Shown: one piece after another, positions 2,911-29,586 of the stretch
Position numbering within the stretch: position 1 is the stretch's first letter
How the letters are laid out: each line of letters opens with the position of its first letter
NCBI GenBank assembly: GCA_003094555.1
Contig: NATW01000086.1
Span: 1 to 33,716, forward strand
Reading direction: 5' to 3'
Length of the DNA stretch: 33,716 nt
DNA from: a gamma proteobacterium symbiont of Ctena orbiculata
Lineage (GTDB): Bacteria > Pseudomonadota > Gammaproteobacteria > Chromatiales > Chromatiaceae
Notes under the pieces: generated by a model
Seen by the model: only the letters and a program-made list of their open reading frames with translations
Told to the model about the DNA's origin: nothing
The model's database searches: none
Translations under genes and position numbers: made by a program

Positions 2911-3323
2911 GCTTTGGGAAAATTGTGGGGGGCGTGAGAATATGAATCTTTTTATCGCATGTATACAGCTTATCTGAGTTTAAACAGGCTTTGCTGGGGA
3001 GACAAACACGCTGCTTTCTTGCATTGGGTTTAGAAATGGTTTAAATAAACAGTGAAATCCAATTCATGCCAGCACAGGGAACTTTGGAAGTGAATGCAAC
3101 GGATCGGAAAATCCAACCCCGTACCCACACCGCCTCAACCAGTTTGACGTCACAGAAAACTGTCGGGCACATGCCCCTTCAATTAATCAAAGTCCTTATA
3201 TGGTGCTTTAAATATTCACTTGTCGGCATAAGTCATTATTTGTGGCGTCCCCAAAATCCACTGTTATGCGATAAAAATAGAGTCACTAGCAGTGCTTTAT
3301 TGTAAAACACTGGGGATATGCAT
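2911..3323. other. AT-rich intergenic region before the DUF4062 gene
   Basis: About 410 bases after the terminator hold no convincing gene. Base composition shifts sharply to AT-rich here, matching the DUF4062 gene that follows. A 79-codon open frame at 3066-3305 has no family resemblance and no good ribosome-binding site. The region presumably contains the promoter of the next gene, but no box close to consensus stands out. Confidence 0.5.
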
Positions 3324-4910
3324 ATGAAAAGTAATGGTTTGTATGAGCAAGAAAGAAAATACCAAGTATTTATAAGTTCGCCATTCAGCTTGCAGGAAGT
3401 GAGGCAGCAGGTGTTTCGCGCCGTATTGATGACAAATCACATTCCGATCAGAATGGAAGAGACTCCCGCCACTAGTAGAGCCACCAGAGAAGTCATTAAA
3501 AGCGCCATTCAGAAATCTGACATTTATGTACTGATTTTAGGTTGCCGTTATGGATCGTTAATGCATGATGAAGGCGGCAATATGAGTTTTACGGAGTGGG
3601 AGTATAATCAGGCGGTTGCCTCGGGTGCCGAAATATTGATTTACTTGTTGAACGAAACTGAAATACGAGAAAAAAGACGTTTGTTAGACGGAGAAAAAAA
3701 GCATGATTCGGAAGAACTTAAGAATGAAGATAAGTTTTGGCGCTTTTACAATATGCTTCGAGAGGGCGATCATTTCGATAATATATGGACAGAACAAGAT
3801 TACCCTGCTCTTTCTGGCGCAGTTGGTATCTCTGTCAACAATACGGCAACAGAGTTATTTAAGAAGAGTCCTGATAGAGGGTTGATACCAGCATCTAGTG
3901 CTCAGACCCTTGATATATTCACTAAAGCTTTAAAGAATGAGTTAAGAGCCGACGTTCATTATAGATTTAATAAATTCGTTGAGCTCGACGATAGGTGCGC
4001 AGATAGCAAGGCAGAAAAAAAAGCGCTAGCTAAGCATTTTGTTACGTATTATATAGAGCGTATCGCAAGCAAGAATGTAAACCTCTATTTTGATACAGGC
4101 TCCACTTCTTCATATGTGGCAAAAGAACTAGGCATTGAAGTAAAGCGTGCCAAGCATAGGGCATACTCGTCGCAGAAACTGATTTCTTCTGTATCCACTA
4201 ATTGTGCATTAACATTTCTACATTTGTGGCTGAGTAGCGACATACCCGCTACCATGTTCCCTGAAGGCCCTGTTGAAGCGCCCTATGGAGCATCTCATGG
4301 GCCACTATCTCTATATGGTGAAGAGTCTTCAAGTCAACAGGCGGACTATTGCCGTTTGGAATTATCACCAGCAGAACAAAAAAGAATCGCAAGCTTGATC
4401 AAGCTATCCCCGCGACTAAACCATGGAAAAGAAACCCCGGTTTTAATTATTGGCGGAGTGTCTGGTGTGAAGATTGCGGATACGCCCGAACCGGTTACTG
4501 ATGACGCTTCCAATTTCTTCATAGATGAGGAAATAAGGGCTTGTATAAAGAGATACCGAGGCTTTCATGTAGGTGATTACCACAGCATGCTGTTCAAACG
4601 GTATTTGTATGAAACAGGATTACCGATAGTCGTTTGCATGCACTACAACAAGATCCATCAGCCGATCAAAGTAGGGAAATGTCACCTTGTGTTTGATGAT
4701 GCATACTCGTGGGAACAATTTTTAGAAAACTACCCATTCGCGCTGTGCATTGGATATGACCACAACGATGAGTCAGAAGTCAAAGATGTTTTGGATGAAC
4801 TAGCTTTGACTCCGTTGATTCCACAGCGTCATGACGGGTCAAGAAAACGAGCGATATTAGTGGGGAACAAGAAGTATCTAGAATGGGAAGATAGCATAAC
4901 AAAGGCATAA
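3324..4910 (+). CDS. DUF4062 domain fused to a DeoR-type (ISOCOT-like) effector domain; possible defence or stress protein
   Basis: The N-terminal ~110 residues match DUF4062: YQVFISSPFSLQEVRQQ, then IPIRME, SDIYVLILGCRYGS and the acidic MSFTEWEYNQA. DUF4062 is a presumed Rossmann-like domain often found in front of NACHT/STAND ATPases and TPRs. The C-terminal ~300 residues look unlike those. From about residue 235 they follow the DeoR C-terminal sensor fold: a helix with AKHFVTYYIERI, then VNLYFDTGSTSSYVAKEL (compare the DeoR pattern of LDxGTT), STNCALTFL, GPVEAPYGASHGPL, and a late SMLFKRYLYETGLPIVVCMHYNKI block. No helix-turn-helix is visible. The start at 3324 is chosen because GGGG at 3312-3315 lies 8 bases before it; the ATG at 3318 would be too close. 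The gene is monocistronic and AT-rich, suggesting acquisition by transfer. DUF4062 is well supported; the DeoR likeness is by eye; function is unknown. Confidence 0.75.
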   Translation: MKSNGLYEQERKYQVFISSPFSLQEVRQQVFRAVLMTNHIPIRMEETPATSRATREVIKSAIQKSDIYVLILGCRYGSLMHDEGGNMSFTEWEYNQAVASGAEILIYLLNETEIREKRRLLDGEKKHDSEELKNEDKFWRFYNMLREGDHFDNIWTEQDYPALSGAVGISVNNTATELFKKSPDRGLIPASSAQTLDIFTKALKNELRADVHYRFNKFVELDDRCADSKAEKKALAKHFVTYYIERIASKNVNLYFDTGSTSSYVAKELGIEVKRAKHRAYSSQKLISSVSTNCALTFLHLWLSSDIPATMFPEGPVEAPYGASHGPLSLYGEESSSQQADYCRLELSPAEQKRIASLIKLSPRLNHGKETPVLIIGGVSGVKIADTPEPVTDDASNFFIDEEIRACIKRYRGFHVGDYHSMLFKRYLYETGLPIVVCMHYNKIHQPIKVGKCHLVFDDAYSWEQFLENYPFALCIGYDHNDESEVKDVLDELALTPLIPQRHDGSRKRAILVGNKKYLEWEDSITKA

Positions 4911-4956: not shown

Positions 4957-5209
4957 ACTAGCACAACTCTGCCGTTATGTTTTGAACTTCCCCCACCAAA
5001 TCGGAGACCAGGCTACCATCCATTTCAACATCGGTGGTAATGGCGTCATCCATCATGGTGGAATTGAGTTCCAGTTGGAGGCTATCTGTTAACAGTCAGT
5101 AAATTGCGATCAGCTTCACATCACTTATGACATCGATACGTTAATAATTCCATAAGCACGTTTCTTTCTCGAGCATTCAGGGACGAAGCGATAATCATTG
5201 AGATCCCTG

Positions 5210-6244
5210 ATGAAGAAGATTCTCAAACAAAACAAACGTCTGTTTTTCAGCCAGTTGTTGTGGAGCAAACGCATCAACCGGAAATTTATGCCGCATGCCG
5301 GATACATGGGCAATGGCGGAGACATTCACTTGATACTGGGTGTTGATGGCACCGGTATCAATCATTTGATTCAACTTCTGTCACAAGCAGTACCCAACAA
5401 CCGCTTTATTCACAATCCGCTTGCAAAGTTTGAACCCAAACTCACCCTGTCTTACCAAGGTGACAGATTGGCAATTCCCTATCAAAAGGAGTTGACAGCA
5501 GATCACCCCCTGAACCGCGTCTATCGGATTTATGCTGAAGAAAATCTGGCGGAAACCAATTACGATCTGTTACTGATGGAGAACAAAGCAACACCTAGCG
5601 CTTCACTCATTATGAAGGAGACGCATAGCTTACTCGCGACAGAAGCCCTGTTACGGGAATTACAATGTCATACACTGTTCTATATAAGCGATCCCGTCAT
5701 TCTGGCTGAACAGATCTTCTCGCGGGAGGGATTAAATACTTCCTATCTCGAGTCGGAAAGTAAGGCGGTTATGGAATCCCGGTTTCTGAAGCGTTTTCTA
5801 TCTCACGATCTTCGCGCTGTACTACATGCCTATAAACTGATTCAGCGTCTGCCTACAGATCGCCAGCGAAGTATACAGATGAAAGTCTTTACCATCGCCT
5901 TAATCCAGCATATGTTTCGCATGTTGGCTGCTCGCTATCCTGAATTGGCGTCAGTGGTGGATTTTGAGTGTATAGAAAATGATCCCGAACGTTTGCAGTT
6001 CCCTCTTGTCAATTGGTTGGGGTCGAACAGTCTGGAGCACTCAGAACTAATACTCAATAGATCAACCTTCAAGCCGGACGGACAAATGTCTAGACGCTGG
6101 ACACGCTCCTGGCCGGAATCAATCAACACTTTTGATGCACTCACCGCTAAGGATGCGAACCTGGCGTACCAGATCATGATTGATCACGGATTAATGCGTG
6201 ATGAAGGTAAGCACAAAACCTGGGATGAGAGGTTTGCAGTGTGA
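5210..6244 (+). CDS. Sulfotransferase-like P-loop protein
   Basis: The 344-residue protein shows the two landmarks of the sulfotransferase fold. There is a degenerate 5'-phosphosulfate loop near residues 41-55 (LILGVDGTGINHLIQLL, compare GxxRSGTT in classical members), and a downstream MKETH...TLFYISDPVILAEQIF block at about 135-170 that resembles the 3'-phosphate-binding strand usually written as RDP. Here Arg is replaced by Ser. The C-terminal half is helical with no recognised domain. If active it would transfer sulfate from PAPS to a carbohydrate or small molecule, but the altered key residues leave this open. TTG at 5198 is an alternative start; ATG at 5210 is preferred, with a weak GAG 7 bases upstream. 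It has no operon partner and is convergent with sucA. Confidence 0.5.
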   Translation: MKKILKQNKRLFFSQLLWSKRINRKFMPHAGYMGNGGDIHLILGVDGTGINHLIQLLSQAVPNNRFIHNPLAKFEPKLTLSYQGDRLAIPYQKELTADHPLNRVYRIYAEENLAETNYDLLLMENKATPSASLIMKETHSLLATEALLRELQCHTLFYISDPVILAEQIFSREGLNTSYLESESKAVMESRFLKRFLSHDLRAVLHAYKLIQRLPTDRQRSIQMKVFTIALIQHMFRMLAARYPELASVVDFECIENDPERLQFPLVNWLGSNSLEHSELILNRSTFKPDGQMSRRWTRSWPESINTFDALTAKDANLAYQIMIDHGLMRDEGKHKTWDERFAV

Positions 6245-6319: not shown

Positions 6320-9133
6320 TCAATGAACATCGGTATCATCCAGCCGCTCCCCCGGATCATCCACGGCTGCCTCGGATAGCGCCCGTTCGATCAGTTCCAT
6401 TTGTTGCTGGGCATGCATGCGCGAATTACCGCAAGCGGGCGATGCCGAGGGTGGCCGCCCCGAATAACCCAGCACCATGGACTTGGGCTTGCTGACACGT
6501 AGATGGTGCTGAATCTGGTACCAGGCACCCTGGTTGCGCGGTTCCTCCTGACACCACACGAGTTCATGCGCATACACATATTTTTGTAATATATCCATCA
6601 GGGTTCTACGCGGGAAAGGATAGAGCTGTTCGATGCGCAGAATGGCTATATTTGTAATCCCGCGCTCTCGACGCGCCTTGAGCAGGTCAAAATAGACCTT
6701 GCCGCTGCACAACACCACACGCCGGATCTCTGTAACCTGATGCTCATCGAGCTCTTCGATCACCAACGTCAGGGAGCCCTGGGTAATCTCTTCAATCGAC
6801 GATGTGGATAATCGATGCCGCAACAGGCTCTTTGGGGTCATAATCACCAGGGGACGGCGGAAGGCCCGCTTTTGCTGATCCCGCAACAGATGGAACATCT
6901 GCGCCGGAGTGCTCGGGTTCCACACCCGCATGTTCAACTCTGCACACAACTGCAGAAAGCGTTCCAGACGCGCTGACGAATGCTCCGGGCCCTGGCCATC
7001 GAAACCGTGGGGCAGAAACAGGGTCAGCTGACAGAAGCGCCCCCACTTCAGATAACCGCTGGAGATGAACTGATCGATCACCACCTGGGCGCTGTTGCCG
7101 AAATCACCAAACTGGGCTTCCCAGATGACCAGGGTCCCGGGGCTCGATGTGGCATAGCCGTATTCGAAGGCCAGCACGGCGAGTTCGGAGAGGGCGGAGT
7201 TGATGATTTTGAAACTGGGACCATCCCGGGTGATGTGCTGCAGGGGTATGTAGCGCTCATCGGTCCGTTGGTCATGGAGAATGGCATGGCGGTGAGAGAA
7301 GGTACCGCGACCGCTGTCCTGTCCTGAAAAACGCACCGACTCCCCTTCGCTCAACAACGAGGCATAGGCAAGCAGCTCCGCCATACCCCAGTCGAAGTTT
7401 TGCACGCCGGCTATCATATCTGCACGGTTCTCGAGCACCTTTTTGACCCGCGGATGCGGACTGAAGGATGCGGGCAAATGGAGGAGTTTTTCCCCCAAAG
7501 CATTCAATTGCTCAAGGCTGATGGCGGTATCGACCACTTCACCCGGCCTGGCATCGATGTAGCGCTTCCAGTGGCTTAACTGGTAACCCGTGACTGAACC
7601 TTGCAGAAACTCGTGTACCGTGACCTGGCCTTTATCAAGCATGTTGCGGTAATCGCTGATCAGTTGTTCCTCTTCCCCCTGCTGAAGAGTGCCTTCGGTC
7701 ATCAGGCGCTGCGCATAGAGGGCACGTGTCGTTTTCATCTGCTTGATGCGTTGATACATACCGGGCTGGGTGATCATCGGCTCATCGGCCTCGTTGTGGC
7801 CCTGACGACGGTAGCAGACCAGATCGATGACCACGTCGTTGTGGTAGGTATTGCGATATTCGATCGCCAGGCGGGCGACGAAGACCACCGCGTCAGGATC
7901 ATTGGCGTTGACATGAAATATCGGCGCCTCGATCAACTTGGCCATCTCGGTGCAATAGCGGGTCGAGCGCGCTTCCTGGGGCAGACTGGTGGTGAAACCG
8001 ATCTGATTGTTGACCACCACATGCACCGTGCCACCTGTCTGATAGCCGGGGGTCTTCGCCAGGTTGAGGATTTCAGAGGTCACCCCCTGGCCGATGAAGG
8101 CCGCATCCCCATGAATCAGTACCGGCATCACCCGGCCTCTGCCGTTTTCATCAATACTATCCTGCCGCGCACGTACCCCCCCCTCCACCACAGGCGCCAC
8201 AATCTCCAGGTGGGAGGGGTTGAATGCCAGCGCCACATGCACGGGACCACTCGGAGTCTGGATGGTGGAATAGAATCCCTGGTGGTACTTCACATCCCCC
8301 GAGCCGGTTGAATCCTCTTCATCGAGAGTGCCCTCGAACTCGGAAAAGAGCTCCTGTGGCGACTTACCCATCAGGTTGACCAGCACATTCAGACGTCCAC
8401 GGTGGGCCATGCCGATGACCACATGGGTGACACCGAGTTGGCCGCTGCCCTGAACCACCTCATCGAGTAGCGGAATCAGGGAATCTCCACCTTCCAGTGA
8501 GAACCGCTTCTGTCCGATGTAGCGACGATGCAGGTATTGCTCGAGCCCTTCCGCTGAGGTCAGGTCCCTGAGAATTCCCACCCGCGCCTCATCGCTGTGC
8601 TGTCCCCGCCAATCCCCATGGCCGGATTCCAGGCGCTGCTCTATCCAGCGCCGCTGCTCGGTTGAGCTGATGTGCATGTGTTCAGTGGCCAAACTCCCAC
8701 AATAGACCTTATTCAGGATGGCGACGATCTCATCCAGAGGGATTTTACGCTTCGGATCTATCGAAATGTGGTTGAAGCGTTTTTTCAACGCCTCCTCCTG
8801 GAGACCATAGTATGACGGACTGAGCTCTATAGGCCGTTCAATCTTATTCAGTTGTAGAGGGTCGGTTGCAGCACATAGATGTCCCATCATGCGGTACGCG
8901 GTGATCAGACGTTCCGCTGCCGCGGCGACACCTACCCCGGGAGTTGGGACGGAGTCTGCCTGAGGTGTGATACTACCGGGCGTCTGTCCCTCGCTATGGG
9001 CGAGTTCGAAACCGTAGAAATAGTGCCTCCACTCGGTGGAAACGCTATCCGGATCCTGCCTGAAGGCTTCGTATAGTTGATCGATATACTGTGCGTTTTG
9101 CGGGTTGATCCCTGTCTTGTTGAAGGTATTCAT
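6320..9133 (-). CDS. sucA: 2-oxoglutarate dehydrogenase E1 component
   Basis: The 937-residue product has the usual length and all main SucA features. The N-terminal segment (YIDQLYEAFRQDPDSVSTEW) is the part that docks on the E2 subunit. The thiamine diphosphate site is seen in GMAHRGRLNVL, NPSHLEIV, GDAAFIGQGV and VVNNQIGFTT, and the C-terminal transketolase-type half carries WEAQFGDFGNSAQ and LPHGFDGQGPEHSSAR. It decarboxylates 2-oxoglutarate and hands the succinyl group to SucB in the oxidative TCA cycle. The ATG has a GAG six bases upstream. The usual downstream sucB and lpd are absent: the next gene is on the other strand. E2 and E3 must be encoded elsewhere if the complex works. Presence of this enzyme argues for a complete TCA cycle and some ability to grow on organic carbon. 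Confidence 0.96.
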   Translation of the reverse strand: MNTFNKTGINPQNAQYIDQLYEAFRQDPDSVSTEWRHYFYGFELAHSEGQTPGSITPQADSVPTPGVGVAAAAERLITAYRMMGHLCAATDPLQLNKIERPIELSPSYYGLQEEALKKRFNHISIDPKRKIPLDEIVAILNKVYCGSLATEHMHISSTEQRRWIEQRLESGHGDWRGQHSDEARVGILRDLTSAEGLEQYLHRRYIGQKRFSLEGGDSLIPLLDEVVQGSGQLGVTHVVIGMAHRGRLNVLVNLMGKSPQELFSEFEGTLDEEDSTGSGDVKYHQGFYSTIQTPSGPVHVALAFNPSHLEIVAPVVEGGVRARQDSIDENGRGRVMPVLIHGDAAFIGQGVTSEILNLAKTPGYQTGGTVHVVVNNQIGFTTSLPQEARSTRYCTEMAKLIEAPIFHVNANDPDAVVFVARLAIEYRNTYHNDVVIDLVCYRRQGHNEADEPMITQPGMYQRIKQMKTTRALYAQRLMTEGTLQQGEEEQLISDYRNMLDKGQVTVHEFLQGSVTGYQLSHWKRYIDARPGEVVDTAISLEQLNALGEKLLHLPASFSPHPRVKKVLENRADMIAGVQNFDWGMAELLAYASLLSEGESVRFSGQDSGRGTFSHRHAILHDQRTDERYIPLQHITRDGPSFKIINSALSELAVLAFEYGYATSSPGTLVIWEAQFGDFGNSAQVVIDQFISSGYLKWGRFCQLTLFLPHGFDGQGPEHSSARLERFLQLCAELNMRVWNPSTPAQMFHLLRDQQKRAFRRPLVIMTPKSLLRHRLSTSSIEEITQGSLTLVIEELDEHQVTEIRRVVLCSGKVYFDLLKARRERGITNIAILRIEQLYPFPRRTLMDILQKYVYAHELVWCQEEPRNQGAWYQIQHHLRVSKPKSMVLGYSGRPPSASPACGNSRMHAQQQMELIERALSEAAVDDPGERLDDTDVH

Positions 9134-9255
9134 TACTGCTCAATATTGGACTGCCAGATGGTTCCAGTGCACTACCCAAGTCTGTATGGATAAAGGGTAA
9201 TATATAGTATAGGAGTCAGAGTGAACCTCTTCATACCAAAATAGTGTTTTACCCC

Positions 9256-9513
9256 CTAGAGCAATGGGTGGTCTTTCGGTAGTTGTTTTGCATACCAGAT
9301 GGCAAGCTTGTGTTTCATGGACAATTGGGAGACCTGATTCTCCGGCAAGGGTTGGATGACTTTGTCATGTACCAAGAGTCGGTAGATGTAGAGGATCTTT
9401 TCACTTGCGGAGTCCGTCGGCTCGAATACGGCAGCACCCCTTTTTTCAGCATATTTTACACCCGCAATAATGGCCCCTTTGACCAACTCTGCTTCATTTT
9501 TAAGTTTCTTCAT
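9256..9513 (-). CDS. DUF5062-like small protein
   Basis: This 85-residue protein (MKKLKNEAELVKGAI..., RGAAVFEPTDSASEKI, LPKDHPLL end) resembles the DUF5062 family of gammaproteobacteria, whose members share the length, the internal EPTDSA segment and the HPLL end. It has no signal peptide or membrane segment and is mostly helical and basic. ATG at 9513 is preferred over the GTG at 9516 because AGAGAG lies 5 bases upstream. It begins 24 bases after the stop codon of the subtilase gene and probably shares its transcript. Function is unknown; the family name is from memory. Confidence 0.75.
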   Translation of the reverse strand: MKKLKNEAELVKGAIIAGVKYAEKRGAAVFEPTDSASEKILYIYRLLVHDKVIQPLPENQVSQLSMKHKLAIWYAKQLPKDHPLL

Positions 9514-9537
9514 CACACTCTCTTATGTGTAAGTGAG

Positions 9538-11559
9538 TCAAGGCCTTGCTCGAACGGTGAGTGTGTCCGATGCAATCTGTCCTGACTGGTCGGTGACCGT
9601 GACGCCAATCGTATAGTTTCTATCCTCGTCAAATGTCAGTTCGACAGTCGGACCGGAAAGTGCCGTCTGCACCGAACCGTCGATTGTCCATTCTATACTG
9701 CAACAGGGTACACCACCTTCAACATCGACCGCACGGGCGGTGACCGTTACCGGACTCCCCATATCGACCACCGGTGTACCAAACACTCCCGGCATGGGAT
9801 CGACGATACGGACGATAGGTGCAAAGTCGGTATCCGAAAAACTATTGATCAGTGCCTGCTGCACCGGTCGCGAAGCATTAAGCCAGCGGTTGACGGTATT
9901 ATCGGGCACCGCAGCTTCAGGTAGGTTGTTCTCATTGGTAGAGGCCAGTGAGAGCAACAGATCCGTCACCTGCGACGGAGTCAGTGTGGGTTCGACTGCA
10001 GTAATCAGTGCAGCCACGCCCGCCGCCAACGGTGCGGCAATCGAGGTACCCGAAGCGGATTGAACAGAGTCGTTGGGCACTCCAGGAAACTGGGGATCAG
10101 CACCGACAAAGATGCCACTACCTGGAGCATAGATATCTACCGTATCGTTATCCTTACCCTGTCCGAAGGTCCCGGTGCCGAAATTGCTCTGCGCCAATCG
10201 TTGCGTACTGTTCGAACGCAACGCTCCGACACACACCACCCCGGTCAGTTCACAGGGCAACTTACGCTCTGTCTCATAGCAGTTGGCGAGGCTGCTTTCG
10301 GGACAGTAGGTCGCATCAATATCCTCACCGTCGTTACCTGAAGCAGCCACCAGCAGAACGCCCAGCGATTCCAGCGATAGCGCGGCAACGTCCAACGGTG
10401 TGGTAGACCATTCAAAGAGTGCGGGAACCGAATAGCCAAAACTCATATTGACGACACGCGGACGCTCGACAACTGTCTTGCCAAGACCGGCAATCCATCC
10501 GATCAATGACCAGGTTTCGTAACCTTCGAAGTTTTGCAGGATCATCTGTGAGACCACAGGTCCAGCCGGACCCGCCACGGCCTTTCCATTACCCAGTCGG
10601 GCAGCCATCGTCTCAGCCGTATTGGAACCGTGCCACTGGCACGCAAATCCACCGGTACAGGTAGCGCTGGCCGGAATATCAAACGGGCCGCCATTCAGCG
10701 TCGGATTTGTCACATCAACGCCTGACCAAAAGCCGGTATCGGCAACACCCGCCACAATCTGGTGCGGCGGGATCGCGAAATTGTTGCCGTCCAGGACGCC
10801 GGCAGCTTTCATCAGGTGCCAGGCATCTGTCACACCAACTGCAGCTGCACCCGTACCGTTGAGGTAGTTGAGCAGGAACGGATTGACGAAGCCGGCATTG
10901 CTGGGCAGAACACCCTCGATAAGGATTTCGTTTTCCAGCGAGAAGGGTTGGCCGACCCAATTAATACCGATGCTGGCCCTGCCACCAAGATGAAGCGCAG
11001 TGGCAAGTCGCAGTGTCGCCCCGGCTTCAGGGGAAGAGACTTCATAGATCCCTCCGTATGCACCGGGAGCCATGCGTTCAATATCGTGAAAGATTTTTGG
11101 GTTTTCGTACTTGCTTGCTTCGATCCGGATCAGACGCTGGTAAAGCGGTCTCTTCTCTCCATCCAGAATCGATGTAATGTCGTGGGTAGCGACAATCCTG
11201 GCATCCAGGCCTTGTCCGATCGCTTCCAGTACCTCAATTTCCGGCGAGACGAGAATCAGCTCATTCTCGACAAATAGGGTGCTCGTGCGATCCTTACGAA
11301 GGACAGCCAGCCGGCGTTCCGAGCCACTGCGGTCGGGCACAATACGATGCTTGGCTGTCAACTTTTGCAGCTGAGGTATGGCACGTATCCGGATACCTAC
11401 ATCCCTCTCCCGCTTTCCTGATTTCGCAATCGGTACTTTCAATTTCATCGACTCAAGCATCTCTGCCGATTTGAATCTTGATTGTTCGGCATGTTTAATC
11501 GGTGCGCACGCAATAAACGTTGAGGCAAGAGAAACAAGTAAAAAGACAAAGACTCTCAT
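9538..11559 (-). CDS. Subtilisin-like (S8) serine protease, predicted lipoprotein with a C-terminal Ig/PKD-like domain
   Basis: The 673-residue precursor begins with a signal peptide and a possible lipobox (FIAC, Cys18), so it is likely a membrane-anchored periplasmic or surface protease. The catalytic triad of the S8 family is visible: Asp274 in AGVADTGF, His310 in WHGSNTAETMAARLG and Ser506 in SASGTSIAAPLAAGVAAL, with oxyanion-hole Asn409 in AASGND. The His motif (HGSNTA in place of HGTHVA) is unusual. Residues ~40-190 form an N-terminal region, perhaps a propeptide. Residues ~580-673 look like an Ig/PKD-type beta-sandwich (PIVRIVDP...VTVTARAVDVEGG...YTIGVTVTDQSG) that may bind substrate or surface. 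GGAGGGA lies 9 bases before the ATG. An 82-codon gene ends 21 bases upstream. Confidence 0.9.
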   Translation of the reverse strand: MRVFVFLLVSLASTFIACAPIKHAEQSRFKSAEMLESMKLKVPIAKSGKRERDVGIRIRAIPQLQKLTAKHRIVPDRSGSERRLAVLRKDRTSTLFVENELILVSPEIEVLEAIGQGLDARIVATHDITSILDGEKRPLYQRLIRIEASKYENPKIFHDIERMAPGAYGGIYEVSSPEAGATLRLATALHLGGRASIGINWVGQPFSLENEILIEGVLPSNAGFVNPFLLNYLNGTGAAAVGVTDAWHLMKAAGVLDGNNFAIPPHQIVAGVADTGFWSGVDVTNPTLNGGPFDIPASATCTGGFACQWHGSNTAETMAARLGNGKAVAGPAGPVVSQMILQNFEGYETWSLIGWIAGLGKTVVERPRVVNMSFGYSVPALFEWSTTPLDVAALSLESLGVLLVAASGNDGEDIDATYCPESSLANCYETERKLPCELTGVVCVGALRSNSTQRLAQSNFGTGTFGQGKDNDTVDIYAPGSGIFVGADPQFPGVPNDSVQSASGTSIAAPLAAGVAALITAVEPTLTPSQVTDLLLSLASTNENNLPEAAVPDNTVNRWLNASRPVQQALINSFSDTDFAPIVRIVDPMPGVFGTPVVDMGSPVTVTARAVDVEGGVPCCSIEWTIDGSVQTALSGPTVELTFDEDRNYTIGVTVTDQSGQIASDTLTVRARP

Positions 11560-22577: not shown

Positions 22578-22850
22578 CAGCGTAGCATCCTCCGGTTTGC
22601 CGTCCGCGCTCTACAGGGTGATTGGCCTTCTGCCCAGTGGCTGTCAGGTCCATTTTTTTGTGGACAGACCACAGAAACGCTTGTTTTTTAATGCAGACCA
22701 GACACTGAACGGTGTAAATTAAACACAGTAGTCATTCCCTTAATCCCAGGTTCCGGCTCGACGGCCAGGACGGTACAGGGATACTTATTGGCGACGACTG
22801 TTCCAGGATCCCCCATATGGTGCAGGATTTGTAGAAAATGGAGTTTTTAT

Positions 22851-25796
22851 ATGCGACATTGGAAAAGCTATATCGGACTCATTCTGTCAGTTTCATCCAT
22901 CCTGCTCCTACTGACCTCATGTGGCGGCTCCGGCAACAGTGGTGAGCCTGGTGATTCGACAAATGACACGCCCTCCAATGGCGACTCGGATAATGTGCAA
23001 ATTCAGGACCCGTCGGTCCTTAGCGTCAGTAACCTGCGTACCGCCGCCAATCCAGACATTCCGATCAGCGTATTCAACGATGCAGGGGATGGCTTGGCCG
23101 TCTGGGCGGTGACCAGCGAAGGCACCTGGCTCTATTACTCACTCTATGACTGCGCTTCGGACAGCTGGACAAGTGCGCAAAGATTGGCTGAAGTTGCCCA
23201 TGACGAGTTATATATTGCACCCAAGGTGGTTTCGAACGGTGTCGGCTTTGCCGTTGCCTGGAATACGGATAACAGGCTGTATATCAATCTGTTCAATGAT
23301 GGTGAGTGGGTCACAACCCAGGCAAATCCCGGTGCAACCTGGTTCGATAGTCATGAGTTAATCTCCAATGGCAGAGGTTATCTACTTGCCTGGAGGCAGG
23401 ATTCCGGGGCCAGACAATGGGTATACACCACACTATCAGAAGATGGCATGACATGGGGAGACACGGTTATCCACAGTGAGGCAGCCAGCGATAACGCATT
23501 TTCCATTCAAGTCGAGTCTGATGGAACCGGCTATGCAGTGATCTGGGAAGAGAGTAATACCCGAATCCTGGGTAATATTCATGACGGATCAGCCTGGCTA
23601 GGCACCCAAGAACTGGTCAACCTGCCCGACAGCTCTATTTTCCGTTCCCGCATCGCCAGCAACGGCACGGGATATTTACTGGCCTGGACCAGAGGTGGCG
23701 AATCCATAATGAATCGGATCTATACGCCATCTGACGGCTGGGGTCTCAGCGAAGTACTGTTCCCGCGGGACAGCGATGACAATTCAGCACACGTCAATGC
23801 GATCGTCTCAAACGGTACGGGATATTGCGCACTGATCACGAAGTACGAGGAGGCCGGTCAGTGGGGACTCTATGCGGCAATCGACTCTCAGGGCAATGGA
23901 GCCTGGGAAGATACCTCATTGTTGGACATCTCCAGGCAGTGGGGGACCGAACAGTGGACGCTGGTCTCTGACGGCGACGGTTATGCCGCTGCATGGGGTT
24001 ACTTTGACGCTAACAACGACAATATCGTACAACACACCGCAAGTGTTTATCAGGGAACCGGCTGGCATACCTTAAGCAATCCGATAAGCATTGCCCCCAT
24101 AGTCTCGGAAGTGTTGTACCGGTATCGCCTGCACGATCAATTGGACATCGAAATCGCAGGCCTGAACGGTCAGTATGTCCTCACTTCAAAACAGGTAATC
24201 GATGATGTGGACAGCATCACCGCCACCCGCTACGACAGCAATCTGGGTTGGCTTGATACGGAGATCCTGGAAAACGGCTCTGGAACGGCAAAAGACCCAA
24301 AGTTATCCGTGAATCAAGACAGGGGTCTCTCGGTCATCTGGCACCAAATCGATGACAGTGGTACAGCTATCTCGACATACCGTAACCGTATGGATGGGGA
24401 ACAATGGAGCGGTGCGGAACTGCTTCACGAATCCACTTACCTACTCGGCAGCAGTTACACACCACAGCTGGTCGCCGCTGACAACGGCACAACCCTTGCA
24501 CTCTGGTCACAGCATAGAAACGGATACCGGGCGTTGATCGCCAATATCCGTGATGGCGACGCCTGGGCACAACCCGTTGTTCTATCCGACTCAACAACAG
24601 AGACCACACCACGTATTGCCAGTAATGGAACCGGCTTTGCTGTCACCTGGGAGGAACGCAGCGGCGAGGAGTATCTCCTCAAGGGCGTGACCTTTGAGCG
24701 GGATGGGTGGAGTGATTCCATTGTGCATGATATCAGTGTGCTGCAATACTCATCCAAACCCATACCCATGGTATTGGCGTCAAATGGCCGCGATTACATG
24801 TTGTTGCATTTCGACTACCCCAGCCAGTCAAACACAACGGGAAACCTGATCGCACGCCATTTTGACGCCATCGATTGGCGCGAACCCGCTATGGTTGCCG
24901 AAGGTGTCTATTTCGCAACCAGGTATCCAAAGATCGCAACCAACGGAACAACCTATTTGACGGCCTGGTTACAACAGGGCGATACCATGGACATCTATTC
25001 GTCTCAATATGATGGCGATGTCTGGGGCAGCGGCCTGTTGGTGGCATCCGACCTGGAGATCATATTAAATGAATATGGGATGAGCAGGCCGGATGGCCCT
25101 GAATTGGCGAGTAACGGTGAAGGCTATGGAATATTCTGGTTCGACCGTGGCAACGTGATAGGCAGCCTCTATACAGAGAGCTGGAGCAGTCCCGAAGATA
25201 TTGGTGATATCAACCTCCAGGCCTGGCGCGGTGAGGAGACGCCATACGTCGCATCCAACGGCAGCGGTTATGCGGTTGCATGGCGATCCGATAACGAGAC
25301 GGGATCAACCCTCTATGCCAATGTCTACAACGCTACCTCATGGATCGGCGCCGAGGGATTCAGCGCCAGCCAAAACGACACTTTCGTTCTGCCCGACGAC
25401 GGTGACCTGCTCGAGGCATCAGGGGAAAAATATGCCCTGCTTTGGGCTACACCCTACCCCGAAGTCTCAGCCAGTGTGTACGATGGGAGCCAATGGTCCA
25501 CCACTACCCGCTTGAATCGTGTTCTCAATGAGACCAGCCAGTTTCAATTGGCCAGCGACGGCATGGGATTTCTCGCGGCCTGGATACAAGACAACGGAAG
25601 CGGTACACATGAGATTGTCAGCAGCAGCTACGACAACAATAGCTGGGGAGAGCCCGTGGTCGTGGATGATAACCAACTCAGTAAATTTGATCTCGATCTG
25701 ATTGGGGATTCAACCGGTTTCCAGGCTGTCTGGACGGGGGCTGAACAGGGTGGCGATCCTTGGGTGAGAATTCCCTGGGCCAAGTCGGGACTCTAG
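22851..25796 (+). CDS. Large repeat lipoprotein, probable beta-propeller
   Basis: The 981-residue precursor starts with a lipoprotein signal (MRHWKSYIGLILS..., lipobox LLTSC, Gly following, so probably outer membrane). ATG 22851 is chosen because GGAG (22840-22843) lies 7 bases before it; the frame is open back to 22788. After a short disordered linker come about 17 tandem units of roughly 50-60 residues built on the pattern SNGxGYxxAW (ASNGTGYLLAW, VSNGVGFAVAW, LASNGEGYGIFW, VASNGSGYAVAW and so on), each with further Tyr/Trp positions. The pattern suggests four-stranded blades of one or more beta-propellers. Function cannot be given; such propellers often bind glycans or partners at the cell surface. 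It is transcribed alone. Confidence 0.85.
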   Translation: MRHWKSYIGLILSVSSILLLLTSCGGSGNSGEPGDSTNDTPSNGDSDNVQIQDPSVLSVSNLRTAANPDIPISVFNDAGDGLAVWAVTSEGTWLYYSLYDCASDSWTSAQRLAEVAHDELYIAPKVVSNGVGFAVAWNTDNRLYINLFNDGEWVTTQANPGATWFDSHELISNGRGYLLAWRQDSGARQWVYTTLSEDGMTWGDTVIHSEAASDNAFSIQVESDGTGYAVIWEESNTRILGNIHDGSAWLGTQELVNLPDSSIFRSRIASNGTGYLLAWTRGGESIMNRIYTPSDGWGLSEVLFPRDSDDNSAHVNAIVSNGTGYCALITKYEEAGQWGLYAAIDSQGNGAWEDTSLLDISRQWGTEQWTLVSDGDGYAAAWGYFDANNDNIVQHTASVYQGTGWHTLSNPISIAPIVSEVLYRYRLHDQLDIEIAGLNGQYVLTSKQVIDDVDSITATRYDSNLGWLDTEILENGSGTAKDPKLSVNQDRGLSVIWHQIDDSGTAISTYRNRMDGEQWSGAELLHESTYLLGSSYTPQLVAADNGTTLALWSQHRNGYRALIANIRDGDAWAQPVVLSDSTTETTPRIASNGTGFAVTWEERSGEEYLLKGVTFERDGWSDSIVHDISVLQYSSKPIPMVLASNGRDYMLLHFDYPSQSNTTGNLIARHFDAIDWREPAMVAEGVYFATRYPKIATNGTTYLTAWLQQGDTMDIYSSQYDGDVWGSGLLVASDLEIILNEYGMSRPDGPELASNGEGYGIFWFDRGNVIGSLYTESWSSPEDIGDINLQAWRGEETPYVASNGSGYAVAWRSDNETGSTLYANVYNATSWIGAEGFSASQNDTFVLPDDGDLLEASGEKYALLWATPYPEVSASVYDGSQWSTTTRLNRVLNETSQFQLASDGMGFLAAWIQDNGSGTHEIVSSSYDNNSWGEPVVVDDNQLSKFDLDLIGDSTGFQAVWTGAEQGGDPWVRIPWAKSGL

Positions 25797-27075: not shown

Positions 27076-29061
27076 TTACTTGAACAACTTAGCCTTATCT
27101 ACGATATCTACGTGTGCCCGCTTGAAGCACTTGTAGGTCTTGGTCTCTCTGTCGTAGATGGAGTTTACGAAGCACTTCCAGTTCTCTTCGTCGACAAAGT
27201 TCTTATCCATGCGGTAGTAGAAACCAGGATAACGAGACTCTTGACGGAACTGAATGTGTTTCATGTGAGCTTCAGCAGTCAGGATGCGGTGATAGTTCTC
27301 CCACGCACGCAGCAGTTCGTGGAGGTCCTTGGCGCGCATCTTGAGGGCGTCTTCCTTGAGCATTTCCAGCTTCTGCTCAGCCAGGTCCAGCATGTGCTCG
27401 TTGGTGGTGTAGTAGGTGGCAACACCGGCAACGTACTCATCCATAACCTTCTGCAGACGGAACTGCAGCATCCGCGGTGTGATGTAGTTGGGATTCACAT
27501 CAATCGCAGTTGAGTAGTCCTTGTGCTCTAGGTAGTTGCGAACCGGACGGTAGATCTCTTCGATCAGGGAATCAACGTCGGTGTCCAGCTCAGGGCTGAG
27601 ATCCTTGTTGTCCATGACGTACTTGACCATGGCCTTGGCGGCCATACGGCCTTCGGCATGGGAACCGGAAGAGAATTTGTGACCGGAAGCGCCCACGCCG
27701 TCACCAGCGGTGAACAGACCGGAGACGGTGGTCATACCACGGTAGCCCCAGTTCCAGCCCTGAGGCAGATGCTCAGGCACGCCAGCCTCGGTCTCCTCGG
27801 TAGGTGCGCCAACATCTTCAGGACCGGAGGTCCAGATGCCGCAACAACCGGAGTGAGAGCCCAGCAGGTAGGGTTCGGTAGGCATCAGCTCTGAGTTCTT
27901 TTTCTCAGGCTCGATGTTCTCACCAGCCCAGATACCGCACTGGCCGATACACATGTCCAGGAAGTCTTCCCAGGCCTCGGCTTCCAGATGCTTAACCTCA
28001 CGGGGAGACAGGGTCTCACGCAGGTTGGCAAGGGCGGTGACAGTGTCCATCCAGATAGGACCACGACCCTCTTTCATCTCTTTCAGCATCAGATGGTTAC
28101 GCAGGCAGGATGCGGGAACGGCAGCCTGACCATAAGGAGGATAGTCGTCCAGCATCTCCTTGTTGCGGTCCATGTAGACTTCACCAAAGGCGTTGGTGGC
28201 CTTGGATTTGAAGAGCAGGAACCATGCGCCAACAGGACCGTAACCGTCTTTGAAACGGGTAGGTACGAAGCGGTTTTCCATCATGGTCAGCTCAGCACCA
28301 GCCTCGGCAGCCATGGCGTAGGTGGAACCAGCGTTCCATACCGGGTACCAGGCACGGCCCTGACCCTCACCCACAGAGCGGGGACGGAAGATGTTTACAC
28401 AACCACCGGCAGCCAGCAGGATGGCCTTTGCCTTGAAGACATACAGCTTGTGCTCACGTACAGAGAAACCAACGGCACCGGCGATGCGGTTGGGATCGTT
28501 CTTGTCGTTGACCAGCTTGACGATGAAGATACGCTCCTGGATGTTGTCCATGCCCAGGGCTTTCTTCGCGGCTTCAGCGACGATCCACTTGTAGGACTCA
28601 CCGTTGATCATGATCTGCCACTTACCGGAACGTACGGGCTTGCCGCCGTCCTTCAATGGGGTCATGCCCTTGGAACCGTCGTGACGCTCACCGTTCTCAT
28701 CAGTCTTCCAGATGGGCAGGCCCCACTCTTCGAACAGATGCACGGACTCGTCAACGTGGCGACCCAGGTCATAGGCCAGATCGTCACGGGTGATACCCAT
28801 CAGATCGTTGGAGACCATACGTGCGTAATCGGCGGGATCCTGTTCCGAACCGATGTAAGTGTTGATAGCGGAGAGACCCTGGGCGACAGCACCAGAACGG
28901 TCCATAGCGGCCTTATCGACCAGCTTAACTTTAATGTCGCCACCAGCGGCTTGTACCCAAGGACCGATCTCATAGGCGGCACCACTACAGGCCATACCAC
29001 CACCGATCAGCAGGATGTCTACCTCTTCTTGGACGACTTCCGGATTTCCGAACTCAGCCAT
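27076..29061 (-). CDS. aprA: Adenylylsulfate (APS) reductase alpha subunit
   Basis: The 661-residue protein is a full-length AprA: FAD-binding EVDILLIGGGMACSGAAYE at the N terminus, MENRFVPTRFKDGYGPVGAW and GSHSGCCGIWTSGPED around the active site, and the FAD-contacting GDGVGASGHKFSSGSHAEGR. With AprB it interconverts adenylylsulfate and sulfite plus AMP in the cytoplasm; in a sulfur oxidiser it runs toward adenylylsulfate, whose sulfate and ATP or ADP are then released by sulfurylase. It follows aprB by 51 bases; GAGGAA lies 6 bases before the ATG. No aprM gene is adjacent, while Qmo-type genes exist at the left edge, which fits the Qmo-dependent type of AprBA. Direction of the reaction is inference from the Qmo/Hdr context, not from residues. 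Confidence 0.97.
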   Translation of the reverse strand: MAEFGNPEVVQEEVDILLIGGGMACSGAAYEIGPWVQAAGGDIKVKLVDKAAMDRSGAVAQGLSAINTYIGSEQDPADYARMVSNDLMGITRDDLAYDLGRHVDESVHLFEEWGLPIWKTDENGERHDGSKGMTPLKDGGKPVRSGKWQIMINGESYKWIVAEAAKKALGMDNIQERIFIVKLVNDKNDPNRIAGAVGFSVREHKLYVFKAKAILLAAGGCVNIFRPRSVGEGQGRAWYPVWNAGSTYAMAAEAGAELTMMENRFVPTRFKDGYGPVGAWFLLFKSKATNAFGEVYMDRNKEMLDDYPPYGQAAVPASCLRNHLMLKEMKEGRGPIWMDTVTALANLRETLSPREVKHLEAEAWEDFLDMCIGQCGIWAGENIEPEKKNSELMPTEPYLLGSHSGCCGIWTSGPEDVGAPTEETEAGVPEHLPQGWNWGYRGMTTVSGLFTAGDGVGASGHKFSSGSHAEGRMAAKAMVKYVMDNKDLSPELDTDVDSLIEEIYRPVRNYLEHKDYSTAIDVNPNYITPRMLQFRLQKVMDEYVAGVATYYTTNEHMLDLAEQKLEMLKEDALKMRAKDLHELLRAWENYHRILTAEAHMKHIQFRQESRYPGFYYRMDKNFVDEENWKCFVNSIYDRETKTYKCFKRAHVDIVDKAKLFK

Positions 29062-29112
29062 TTTTAATTCCTCAAAAAATTTCGTTAGTTTCTAAATCTG
29101 TCTGAATCCGGC

Positions 29113-29586
29113 TTATTTGCGGATCAGTTCGCTAGCATCACCGGCACGGTAGCCGTTCTGCTCATTGTGATTGAAGAAACCGGGCTCACCGATCTTCGCG
29201 ATATCGGCAGCAGGCTTACCACCATAGGGATCGATGGAACCCTCTGGAGTGGTACGGATCGGGAACTTGAAGCGCTTCATGGTGCCGTTGCGGAACTTGA
29301 TGGTCCACATGATGGAATCGGTACCGCGCAGAGGCTGTACAGATGCGCCCAGAGGTACGATATCGGCGTAAGGACGCGCTTCGATGGCCTGCTGAGGGCA
29401 GATCTTGATGCAGGAGTAACACTCCCAGCACTGCTCAGGCTCTTGGTTGAAGGACTTCATGGCATGGCCTGTCTCTGAGCCGTCTTTATCCAGCTTCATC
29501 AGGTCGTGAGGACAGATGTACATGCAAGCTGTCCTGTCCTGGCCTTTACAGCCATCGCACTTCTCAGTACGCACAAATGTTGGCAT
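29113..29586 (-). CDS. aprB: Adenylylsulfate (APS) reductase beta subunit
   Basis: The 157-residue protein carries two [4Fe-4S] motifs: Cys10-13-21-25 (CDGCKGQDRTACMYICP, with the longer AprB spacing) and Cys53-56-59-63 (CWECYSCIKICP). The C-terminal tail (MWTIKFRNGTMKRFKFPIRT, then PAADIAKIGEPGFFN) wraps AprA in known structures. It relays electrons between the AprA flavin and the outer partner, here presumably the Qmo complex. AGGAGA stands 8 bases before the ATG. It is the first gene of the aprBA transcript, with a long upstream region of ~510 bases. Confidence 0.97.
   Translation of the reverse strand: MPTFVRTEKCDGCKGQDRTACMYICPHDLMKLDKDGSETGHAMKSFNQEPEQCWECYSCIKICPQQAIEARPYADIVPLGASVQPLRGTDSIMWTIKFRNGTMKRFKFPIRTTPEGSIDPYGGKPAADIAKIGEPGFFNHNEQNGYRAGDASELIRK

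What the first reader, a model, noticed from the sequence alone, without database searches (positions are those of the whole stretch)
3324..4910. DUF4062 fused to a DeoR-type sensor domain without DNA-binding part
The front of the protein is DUF4062, normally attached to STAND/NACHT ATPases. The back shows the order of motifs of the DeoR C-terminal sugar-phosphate sensor (LYFDTGSTSSYVAKEL, STNCAL, GASHGPL, SMLFKRYLYETGLPIVV). The combination would be a two-part device: ligand sensing by an ISOCOT-type domain, response by DUF4062. DUF4062 may belong with TIR/SLOG-like nucleotide-processing folds, so a nucleotide- or sugar-phosphate-triggered defence or stress protein is a reasonable guess. The gene stands alone on an AT-rich islet between core genes, as defence genes often do. 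DUF4062 is seen directly; the DeoR likeness is pattern recognition; defence is inference.
Basis: partly seen in the sequence, partly recalled or inferred. Interest (0 to 1): 0.8.

Follow-up and report, generated by a model that had tools for sequence, protein, structure and literature searches.

The report
NAD-destroying protein with metabolite-sensor tail
A foreign-looking bacterial gene joins a domain of the kind that destroys the cell's NAD during virus attack to a tail that resembles the sugar-sensing half of DeoR gene regulators, hinting at a suicide-type defence switched on by a small molecule, though nobody has tested it.

Summary
The finding holds up in its anatomy. The 530-aa ORF at 3318-4910 begins with DUF4062 (E 2.3e-21). 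A 2026 preprint, whose body I read, shows DUF4062 to be a TIR-like NADase, the executioner of the phage-defence protein KpSwz. The catalytic Glu (E95 here) is invariant in 24 aligned DUF4062 sequences.

The tail, unnamed by Pfam, matches 31 independent DeoR regulators in profile-profile comparison (92.8% probability, score 54.0; best of 200 shuffles 23.0). The signal comes mostly from residues 232-309; the rest alone is not distinguishable from shuffles. DeoR sensor motifs are kept, the DNA-binding winged helix is not. Structure prediction of the tail was inconclusive.

The layout recurs in a Magnetococcales MAG (35%) and a Rhizobiaceae MAG (25%), each time as an AT-rich gene among ordinary chromosomal genes. 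Between two same-species genomes the gene is about eightfold less diverged than its flanks, which suggests recent exchange.

Best reading: a single-gene Swarozyc-like NADase whose portal-binding sensor is replaced by a DeoR-type small-molecule sensor. NADase activity, ligand and defence are untested here. New variant of a known kind.

The parts
3318..4910 (+). 530-aa gene: DUF4062 (TIR-like) + stalk + DeoR-like sensor; alternative start ATG at 3324
3357..3866 (+). TIR-like domain, residues 14-183 (Pfam DUF4062 match = residues 16-99, nt 3363-3614)
   Evidence: PF13271 2.3e-21; model pLDDT 68-96 per block over residues 11-190; TIR/NDT Foldseek matches
3600..3602 (+). codon of Glu95, aligned with catalytic Glu97 of KpSwz
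   Evidence: invariant in 24 aligned DUF4062 sequences; the KpSwz PDB chain has Ala there, which fits the E97A mutant (inferred from construct numbering)
3879..3998 (+). stalk: G188 element (GW in the two homologues, GL here) followed by a long predicted helix, residues 188-227, in place of a winged helix
   Evidence: equivalence with the KpSwz helical stalk of PMC13174449 is inferred
4008..4865 (+). DeoR-C/ISOCOT-like sensor, residues 231-516 (best supported over 232-309)
   Evidence: hhalign probability 92.8 to 31 DeoR proteins; order of secondary structure in the model
4098..4109 (+). GSTS loop (residues 261-264), counterpart of DeoR G-T/S-T-T
4197..4202 (+). Thr-Asn (residues 294-295), counterpart of the DeoR TN motif
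   Evidence: invariant in 3 of 3 family members; T 100%, N 97% of 33 DeoR rows
4257..4301 (+). FPEG...YGASHG (residues 314-328), counterpart of the DeoR GG...G motif
   Evidence: G317, G328 invariant; G 94% and 91% in DeoR rows
4641..4652 (+). H442-x-x-K445, counterpart of the DeoR D-x-x-K ligand contact (Lys kept, Asp replaced by His; Asp kept in the Rhizobiaceae homologue); lies in the weakly supported half of the alignment
   Evidence: ligand role of D/K in UlaR and LacR from a passage of PMC10991401

Best explanation
A single-gene, self-contained stress or defence switch. The N-terminal DUF4062 domain is a TIR-like NADase held inactive by its oligomeric packing. The stalk passes a signal from the C-terminal DeoR-type (ISOCOT-fold) domain, which oligomerises and binds a small phosphorylated or acidic metabolite whose level changes on phage infection or another insult. 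Ligand binding rearranges the oligomer, lets the TIR-like domains form an active site and depletes NAD, stopping growth or killing the cell (abortive infection). Shown by sequence: the TIR-like domain with its catalytic Glu, a statistically supported relationship of the tail to DeoR sensors, absence of the DNA-binding part, recurrence of the layout in three lineages, foreign composition. Inferred: NADase activity, the gating mechanism, the ligand class, the defence role.
For: DUF4062 hit; KpSwz match; DUF4062 shown to be an NADase in phage defence, PMC13174449; Glu95 invariant in 24 sequences; TIR/NDT fold neighbours. DeoR relation: profile-profile 92.8%, score 54.0 against 31 DeoR proteins, 0 of 200 shuffles reaching it. 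Used alone against that profile, the Magnetococcales tail ranks 1 of 502 queries (493 background ORFs, 6 RpiA controls, 3 tails), the window's tail 9, with one background ORF just above it (rank 6 and above all background with the older DeoR set). In 337 genomes of the class of the Rhizobiaceae homologue, the only match besides the homologue at E 0.01 was a DeoR protein, aligned in register. The own genome has no DeoRC match at E 0.001 (0 of 1), so this is unlikely to be a locally decayed DeoR. Layout conserved in Magnetococcales and Rhizobiaceae MAGs. GC of the three genes 42.0/35.8/38.8% against flanks of 52-63%. The gene differs by 5 of 1593 nt between two same-species genomes, the adjacent flanks by 124 of 4726 (Fisher p about 1e-10).
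Against: No Pfam DeoRC hit in 3 of 3 tails; no DeoR chain found when the tail profile searched PDB (one match, an unrelated protein, E 0.13). Residues 310-530 alone are not distinguishable from shuffles. The Rhizobiaceae tail alone does not stand out (rank 21-22 of 502; not among the listed rows). Several DeoR-conserved sensor positions (290, 316, 460) are not kept throughout. Structure models of the tail have low confidence and no ISOCOT protein is recognisable in the listed Foldseek rows. The Asp of the DeoR ligand pair is His in 2 of 3 members. No convincing defence gene beside the three loci among those tested. The family is very rare.
Confidence: 0.48

Rival explanations
1. Same NADase effector, but the DeoR-like domain has lost ligand binding and serves as an oligomerisation and protein-recognition module, triggered by a phage protein as the KpSwz auxiliary domain is by the portal.
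For: KpSwz, the best-studied bacterial relative, is triggered by the phage portal (PMC13174449); the Asp of the DeoR ligand pair is replaced by His in 2 of 3 members, and an insert lies in the sensor of 2 of 3.
Against: The GST, TN and G motifs and the Lys are largely kept across tails that are 27-37% identical, which is unexpected for a mere scaffold.
Confidence: 0.25
2. Not a defence protein: an NADase or nucleotide-processing enzyme of general metabolism that senses sugar phosphates and tunes NAD pools or stress responses.
For: No convincing defence gene beside the three copies among those tested; DUF4062 is also related to nucleoside deoxyribosyltransferases (PMC13174449) and its model matches DNPH1.
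Against: Patchy distribution (2 of 22 genomes of the genus, both of one species), foreign GC in three lineages, signs of recent exchange, and no recognisable metabolic operon partner in the three loci.
Confidence: 0.17
3. The DeoR likeness is convergent motif noise and the tail is an unrelated new domain.
For: No Pfam or PDB sequence hit; structure models inconclusive; the C-terminal part alone no better than shuffles.
Against: Score 54.0 against at most 23.0 in 200 shuffles with a DeoR set chosen without reference to this tail; the Magnetococcales tail alone ranks first of 502; order of motifs and secondary structure fits DeoR.
Confidence: 0.1

Closest known systems
Swarozyc (KpSwz; DUF4062 + winged-helix auxiliary domain; PMC13174449, PDB 10wc/11cq/11cv)
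   Same: DUF4062 TIR-like domain with catalytic Glu, a G-W-type element and helical stretch after it, single gene
   Different: The portal-binding HTH/winged auxiliary domain is replaced by a DeoR-C-like domain; 530 aa against a 326-aa PDB chain; defence, portal sensing and NADase activity not tested for this protein
DeoR-family regulators (PF00455 DeoRC with HTH_DeoR)
   Same: Sensor motifs EK..IA, GST(T/S), TN, G..G, Lys of the D-x-x-K ligand pair
   Different: No winged helix; Asp to His in the ligand pair; inserts; fused to a TIR-like domain; below Pfam detection
Ribose-5-phosphate isomerase A (ISOCOT enzyme)
   Same: GTGST-type loop after a K...A helix (sequences)
   Different: Profile comparison with 26 RpiA-like ORFs (picked by a GTGST-like motif, RpiA by eye) gives only 0.4%, against 58.7% for 3 DeoR proteins in the same call
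Human TEP1, NWD1, NWD2, NPHP3
   Same: DUF4062 domain (PMC13174449)
   Different: Those carry an adjacent NACHT ATPase and other domains; no such match here

Membership tests
DUF4062 TIR-like NADases (PF13271) | Profile match above the curated cut-off | tested here: met
   76.2 bits against 24.7
DUF4062 TIR-like NADases (PF13271) | Catalytic Glu at the KpSwz E97 position | tested here: met
   E95, invariant in 24 rows; correspondence with E97 inferred from the mutant PDB chain
DUF4062 TIR-like NADases (PF13271) | NAD hydrolysis | not testable with these tools
   needs enzyme assay
Swarozyc as first described (KpSwz type) | HTH/winged portal-binding auxiliary domain | tested here: not met
   no HTH model in Pfam for the tail; tail instead matches the DeoR sensor profile; KpSwz aligns only over residues 12-176
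Swarozyc as first described (KpSwz type) | Abortive phage defence | not testable with these tools
   needs plaque assay
DeoR family | N-terminal DeoR winged helix | tested here: not met
   no HTH_DeoR match; aligned positions 199, 201, 205, 212, 215, 216 do not keep the DeoR residues throughout (this part of the alignment is of low confidence)
DeoR family | DeoRC sensor domain (PF00455) | tested here: inconclusive
   no Pfam hit but profile-profile 92.8% with controls, resting mainly on residues 232-309
ISOCOT fold | Rossmann-like ISOCOT structure | tested here: inconclusive
   low-confidence tail models; no ISOCOT protein recognised in the top 50 Foldseek rows; strand-helix order compatible as I recall it
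ISOCOT fold | Ligand-binding D-x-x-K pair of DeoR sensors | tested here: inconclusive
   Lys in 3 of 3; Asp in 1 of 3, His in 2 of 3

The most novel reading that the evidence does not exclude
A metabolite-gated suicide NADase: the DeoR-type domain, freed from DNA binding, measures a phosphorylated sugar produced by infection (for example deoxyribose or ribose phosphate from breakdown of host DNA or of NAD itself) and converts it into NAD depletion through a DUF4062 domain. This would be a class of TIR-type defence that reads metabolism and not a phage structural protein, built by reusing a transcription-factor sensor.
Probability: 0.3. Interest if true: 0.85.

Novelty: new variant of a known kind. 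Interest (0 to 1): 0.6.

Why it matters
DUF4062 proteins were reported as phage-defence NADases only in a 2026 preprint, and their auxiliary domains vary. A member that carries the sensor half of a transcription factor would show that this effector can be plugged to small-molecule sensing, predicts a testable ligand class, and offers a clean biochemical assay (ligand plus NAD) for what trips a TIR-like enzyme.

Tried and rejected
Structure route: AF2 of the full protein gave a confident TIR-like domain but a weak tail; AF2 of the shorter Rhizobiaceae tail with 3 rows had mean pLDDT 49, and its Foldseek rows, mostly methyltransferases with E of 0.16 or more, I treat as meaningless. In one search the first row is 3knz, a putative sugar-binding protein, E 9.5e-4 but TM-scores of 0.14-0.21, and two more sugar-isomerase-type entries (2aml, 6r4g; type recalled) appear with equally low TM; I give them no weight. 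RpiA as nearest relative: 0.4%, although RpiA proteins, used as positive controls, also score with the DeoR profile. Weak tail matches in class and phylum searches (3 genomes at E 0.017-0.084; 5 genomes with 6 places at E 0.027-0.075) were short, four places with in-frame stops, and were dropped as chance. Viral contigs: none; two and twenty-three loci, whose matches lie within query residues 3-256; a scan with the tail profile found none. Among 614 open frames of at least 150 aa in the loci held and the window, the tail profile passed HMMER's inclusion threshold only in the family members and the DeoR protein L027. Phage records: no match. Plasmids: 163 records, none covering 80% of the query, at most 40% in the 40 rows listed; the tail alone gives two hits at E 4. 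tRNAs: none in the window; repeats around the islet showed no insertion signature that I could recognise. Flanks of the second OGDH copy in three of the four other species that have one (L135-L137) match the window only in and next to that gene, so no empty site could be shown. The first DeoR comparison included one protein twice that my own search had selected; repeated without it, which lowered the score and removed the support from the C-terminal half.

Literature: DUF4062 alone gives 9 papers (listing); DeoR+ISOCOT+TIR and DeoR+TIR domain+antiphage none; 'Swarozyc' none (possibly printed with an accent in the text searched); ISOCOT 28 papers, 15 listed; two four- and five-term DeoR searches none; DeoR+NADase 10 and DeoR+antiphage defense 13, 12 listed. 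No title or abstract opening shown in those listings describes such a fusion; that is all I claim about print. PMC13174449: body and figure legends read, most of the reference list and the supplements not. PMC10991401: passages only.

Full report
What is there. The ORF 3318-4910 (+) encodes 530 aa. PF13271 (DUF4062) matches residues 16-99 at E 2.3e-21. PADLOC gives nothing and NCBIfam nothing significant. The only sequence match in PDB below E 0.1 is KpSwz DUF4062, E 1.8e-13, over query residues 12-176.

What DUF4062 is. A May 2026 preprint (PMC13174449; body and legends read) reports that DUF4062 is a TIR-like NADase, that the Klebsiella protein KpSwz (system named Swarozyc) protects E. coli by NAD depletion, that E97 is the active-site residue, and that its winged-helix auxiliary domain binds the phage portal. 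In an alignment of 24 DUF4062 sequences (the window, two full-length homologues, 21 N-terminal parts) the invariant acidic positions are E47 and E95; E95 lies in SFTEWEY. The PDB chain of KpSwz has Ala at the aligned position, which fits the deposited E97A mutant (my inference from construct numbering). So E95 is the likely counterpart of the catalytic Glu. An AF2 model has a confident N-terminal domain; its Foldseek rows include DNPH1, nucleoside deoxyribosyltransferase, SARM1 and plant TIRs at probability 1.00, E 0.002-0.01.

Homologues. Tail or full-length searches: relatives, 3 of 39 genomes matched, own plus two with short N-terminal matches; class, 4 of 369, own plus three weak; phylum, 7 of 398, own, G477 at 4.8e-72 and five weak; genus, 2 of 22, own and the same-species G769; class of G477, 1 of 48, G477 itself; class of the Rhizobiaceae MAG, 2 of 337, itself and a DeoR protein. 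The Magnetococcales protein is 35% identical, the Rhizobiaceae one 25% over residues 12-505. The layout is therefore real and old, but rare. The scans look for short patterns and will have missed relatives.

What the tail is. The three tails share EKK, GS or SS, TN..L, FP.G.....YG...G, Y...LFKR..Y....P and an invariant Lys. Pfam names none of them. In 337 genomes of the Rhizobiaceae homologue's class the tail profile's only other match (E 0.0097 for one genome, so weak alone) was a bona fide DeoR protein, L027, aligned on R-(x)n-EK..IA and the GSTT loop. Against 33 DeoR rows, hhalign gave probability 95.3, score 62.1, but the rows held L027 twice (again as L102). With both taken out, 31 DeoR proteins gave 92.8%, score 54.0, E 3.9e-7; the best of 200 column shuffles scored 23.0 and the reversed alignment 12.6. 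Splitting: residues 232-309 score 41.7 against at most 22.3 in 200 shuffles; residues 310-530 score 21.5, reached by 1 of 200. As single sequences against that profile, with 493 background ORFs (six-frame open frames, not all real genes) and 6 RpiA controls, the Magnetococcales tail ranked 1, the window's tail 9 (behind it, the six controls and one background ORF) and the Rhizobiaceae tail 21 of 502 (1, 6 and 22 with the older set). Plain hmmsearch of the older DeoR profile gave 12.4 bits (Magnetococcales) and 9.5 (window) against a best of 3.9 among 900 residue-shuffled proteins; the Rhizobiaceae protein was not among the rows listed. Column by column, on the older 33 rows (32 distinct proteins), DeoR positions conserved at 90% or more that are identical in at least two of the three tails include K234, G261, T263, L271, T294, N295, G317, G328 and K445; positions 290, 316 and 460 are not kept so. 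DeoR regulators UlaR and LacR bind phosphosugars through an Asp and a Lys three residues on (passage of PMC10991401); the aligned residues are His and Lys here and in Magnetococcales, Asp and Lys in Rhizobiaceae. The winged-helix positions of DeoR are not kept.

Limits. The tail model has pLDDT 35-76 per ten-residue block; a second model of the Rhizobiaceae tail averages 49, and I recognise no ISOCOT protein in the 50 rows of either Foldseek listing. hmmsearch of PDB with the tail profile found no DeoR chain. I rate the DeoR relationship likely (about 0.8), resting mainly on residues 232-309, and not proven.

Surroundings. Left of the islet are Hdr/Qmo-like iron-sulphur genes, right a converging 2-oxoglutarate dehydrogenase gene; the genome holds a second, 51%-identical copy elsewhere. 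GC: gene 42.0%, left 59.7%, right 54.2%. The Magnetococcales gene is 35.8% against 61.5/62.7%, the Rhizobiaceae gene 38.8% against 52.3/55.3%. Neighbours there are RNase Y pieces and a mechanosensitive channel, and a small methyltransferase, an S49 peptidase and glycyl-tRNA synthetase. In Magnetococcales an unnamed 180-aa open frame lies 69 bp downstream on the same strand, so the gene may not be alone there. PADLOC matches among the 18 neighbours tested (mad2-like methyltransferases, a subtilase, Cas3-like HD of RNase Y) look like generic domain overlaps. Between G000 and same-species G769 the gene has 5 differences in 1593 nt (2 amino-acid changes) while the adjacent 4726 nt have 124. The low-divergence tract roughly coincides with the gene, which suggests recent exchange.

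Mechanism. KpSwz is kept inactive by head-to-head packing, and the preprint proposes that portal binding by its auxiliary domain repositions the TIR-like domains (PMC13174449). DeoR-type regulators include dimers, tetramers and octamers (PMC10991401 passage) whose sensor domain answers to small molecules. Joining the two parts by a stalk suggests ligand-driven rearrangement of TIR-like domains. This step, the ligand and the defence role are inference.

Verdict. This is a Swarozyc-like DUF4062 protein with a sensor of another kind: a new variant of a known kind, with defence plausible but untested.

Noticed in passing
window 5198-6244 (+): 348-aa ORF in the same AT-rich islet, without Pfam or PADLOC match; its sequence recalls a P-loop sulfotransferase-like protein (recalled, not tested).
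   Followed up: partly
window 6320-9133 (-): One of two copies of 2-oxoglutarate dehydrogenase E1 in the genome; 64-65%-identical relatives in four other genomes of the genus, and a 51% paralogue elsewhere in the own genome. Between the two same-species genomes it has a tract of high divergence, 97 differences in window 7201-7800.
   Followed up: partly
window 22788-25796 (+): 1002-aa ORF without Pfam match at E 0.001.
   Followed up: no
window 27076-29586 (-): APS reductase beta subunit and an adjacent FAD-binding protein (AprA-like by context), with Hdr/Qmo-like genes at 74-2862: a dissimilatory sulphur metabolism context.
   Followed up: no
L022:9968-11203: Lachnospiraceae DUF4062 protein whose tail contains a GADSVGKST P-loop-like motif, so possibly DUF4062 fused to a kinase-like domain.
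   Followed up: no
L023, L024, L028-L050: DUF4062 proteins, many with a G-W-type stalk element, occur on viral (perhaps prophage) contigs: 23 loci in one scan and two in another, the latter two 600-915 bp upstream of a terminase-like ORF (terminase by eye).
   Followed up: partly
L009:5022-6062 and 9143-10246: Exiguobacterium plasmid pEYLC1.2 carries two DUF4062 genes about 3 kb apart; 152 of 163 plasmid records with a DUF4062 match are from Staphylococcus.
   Followed up: no
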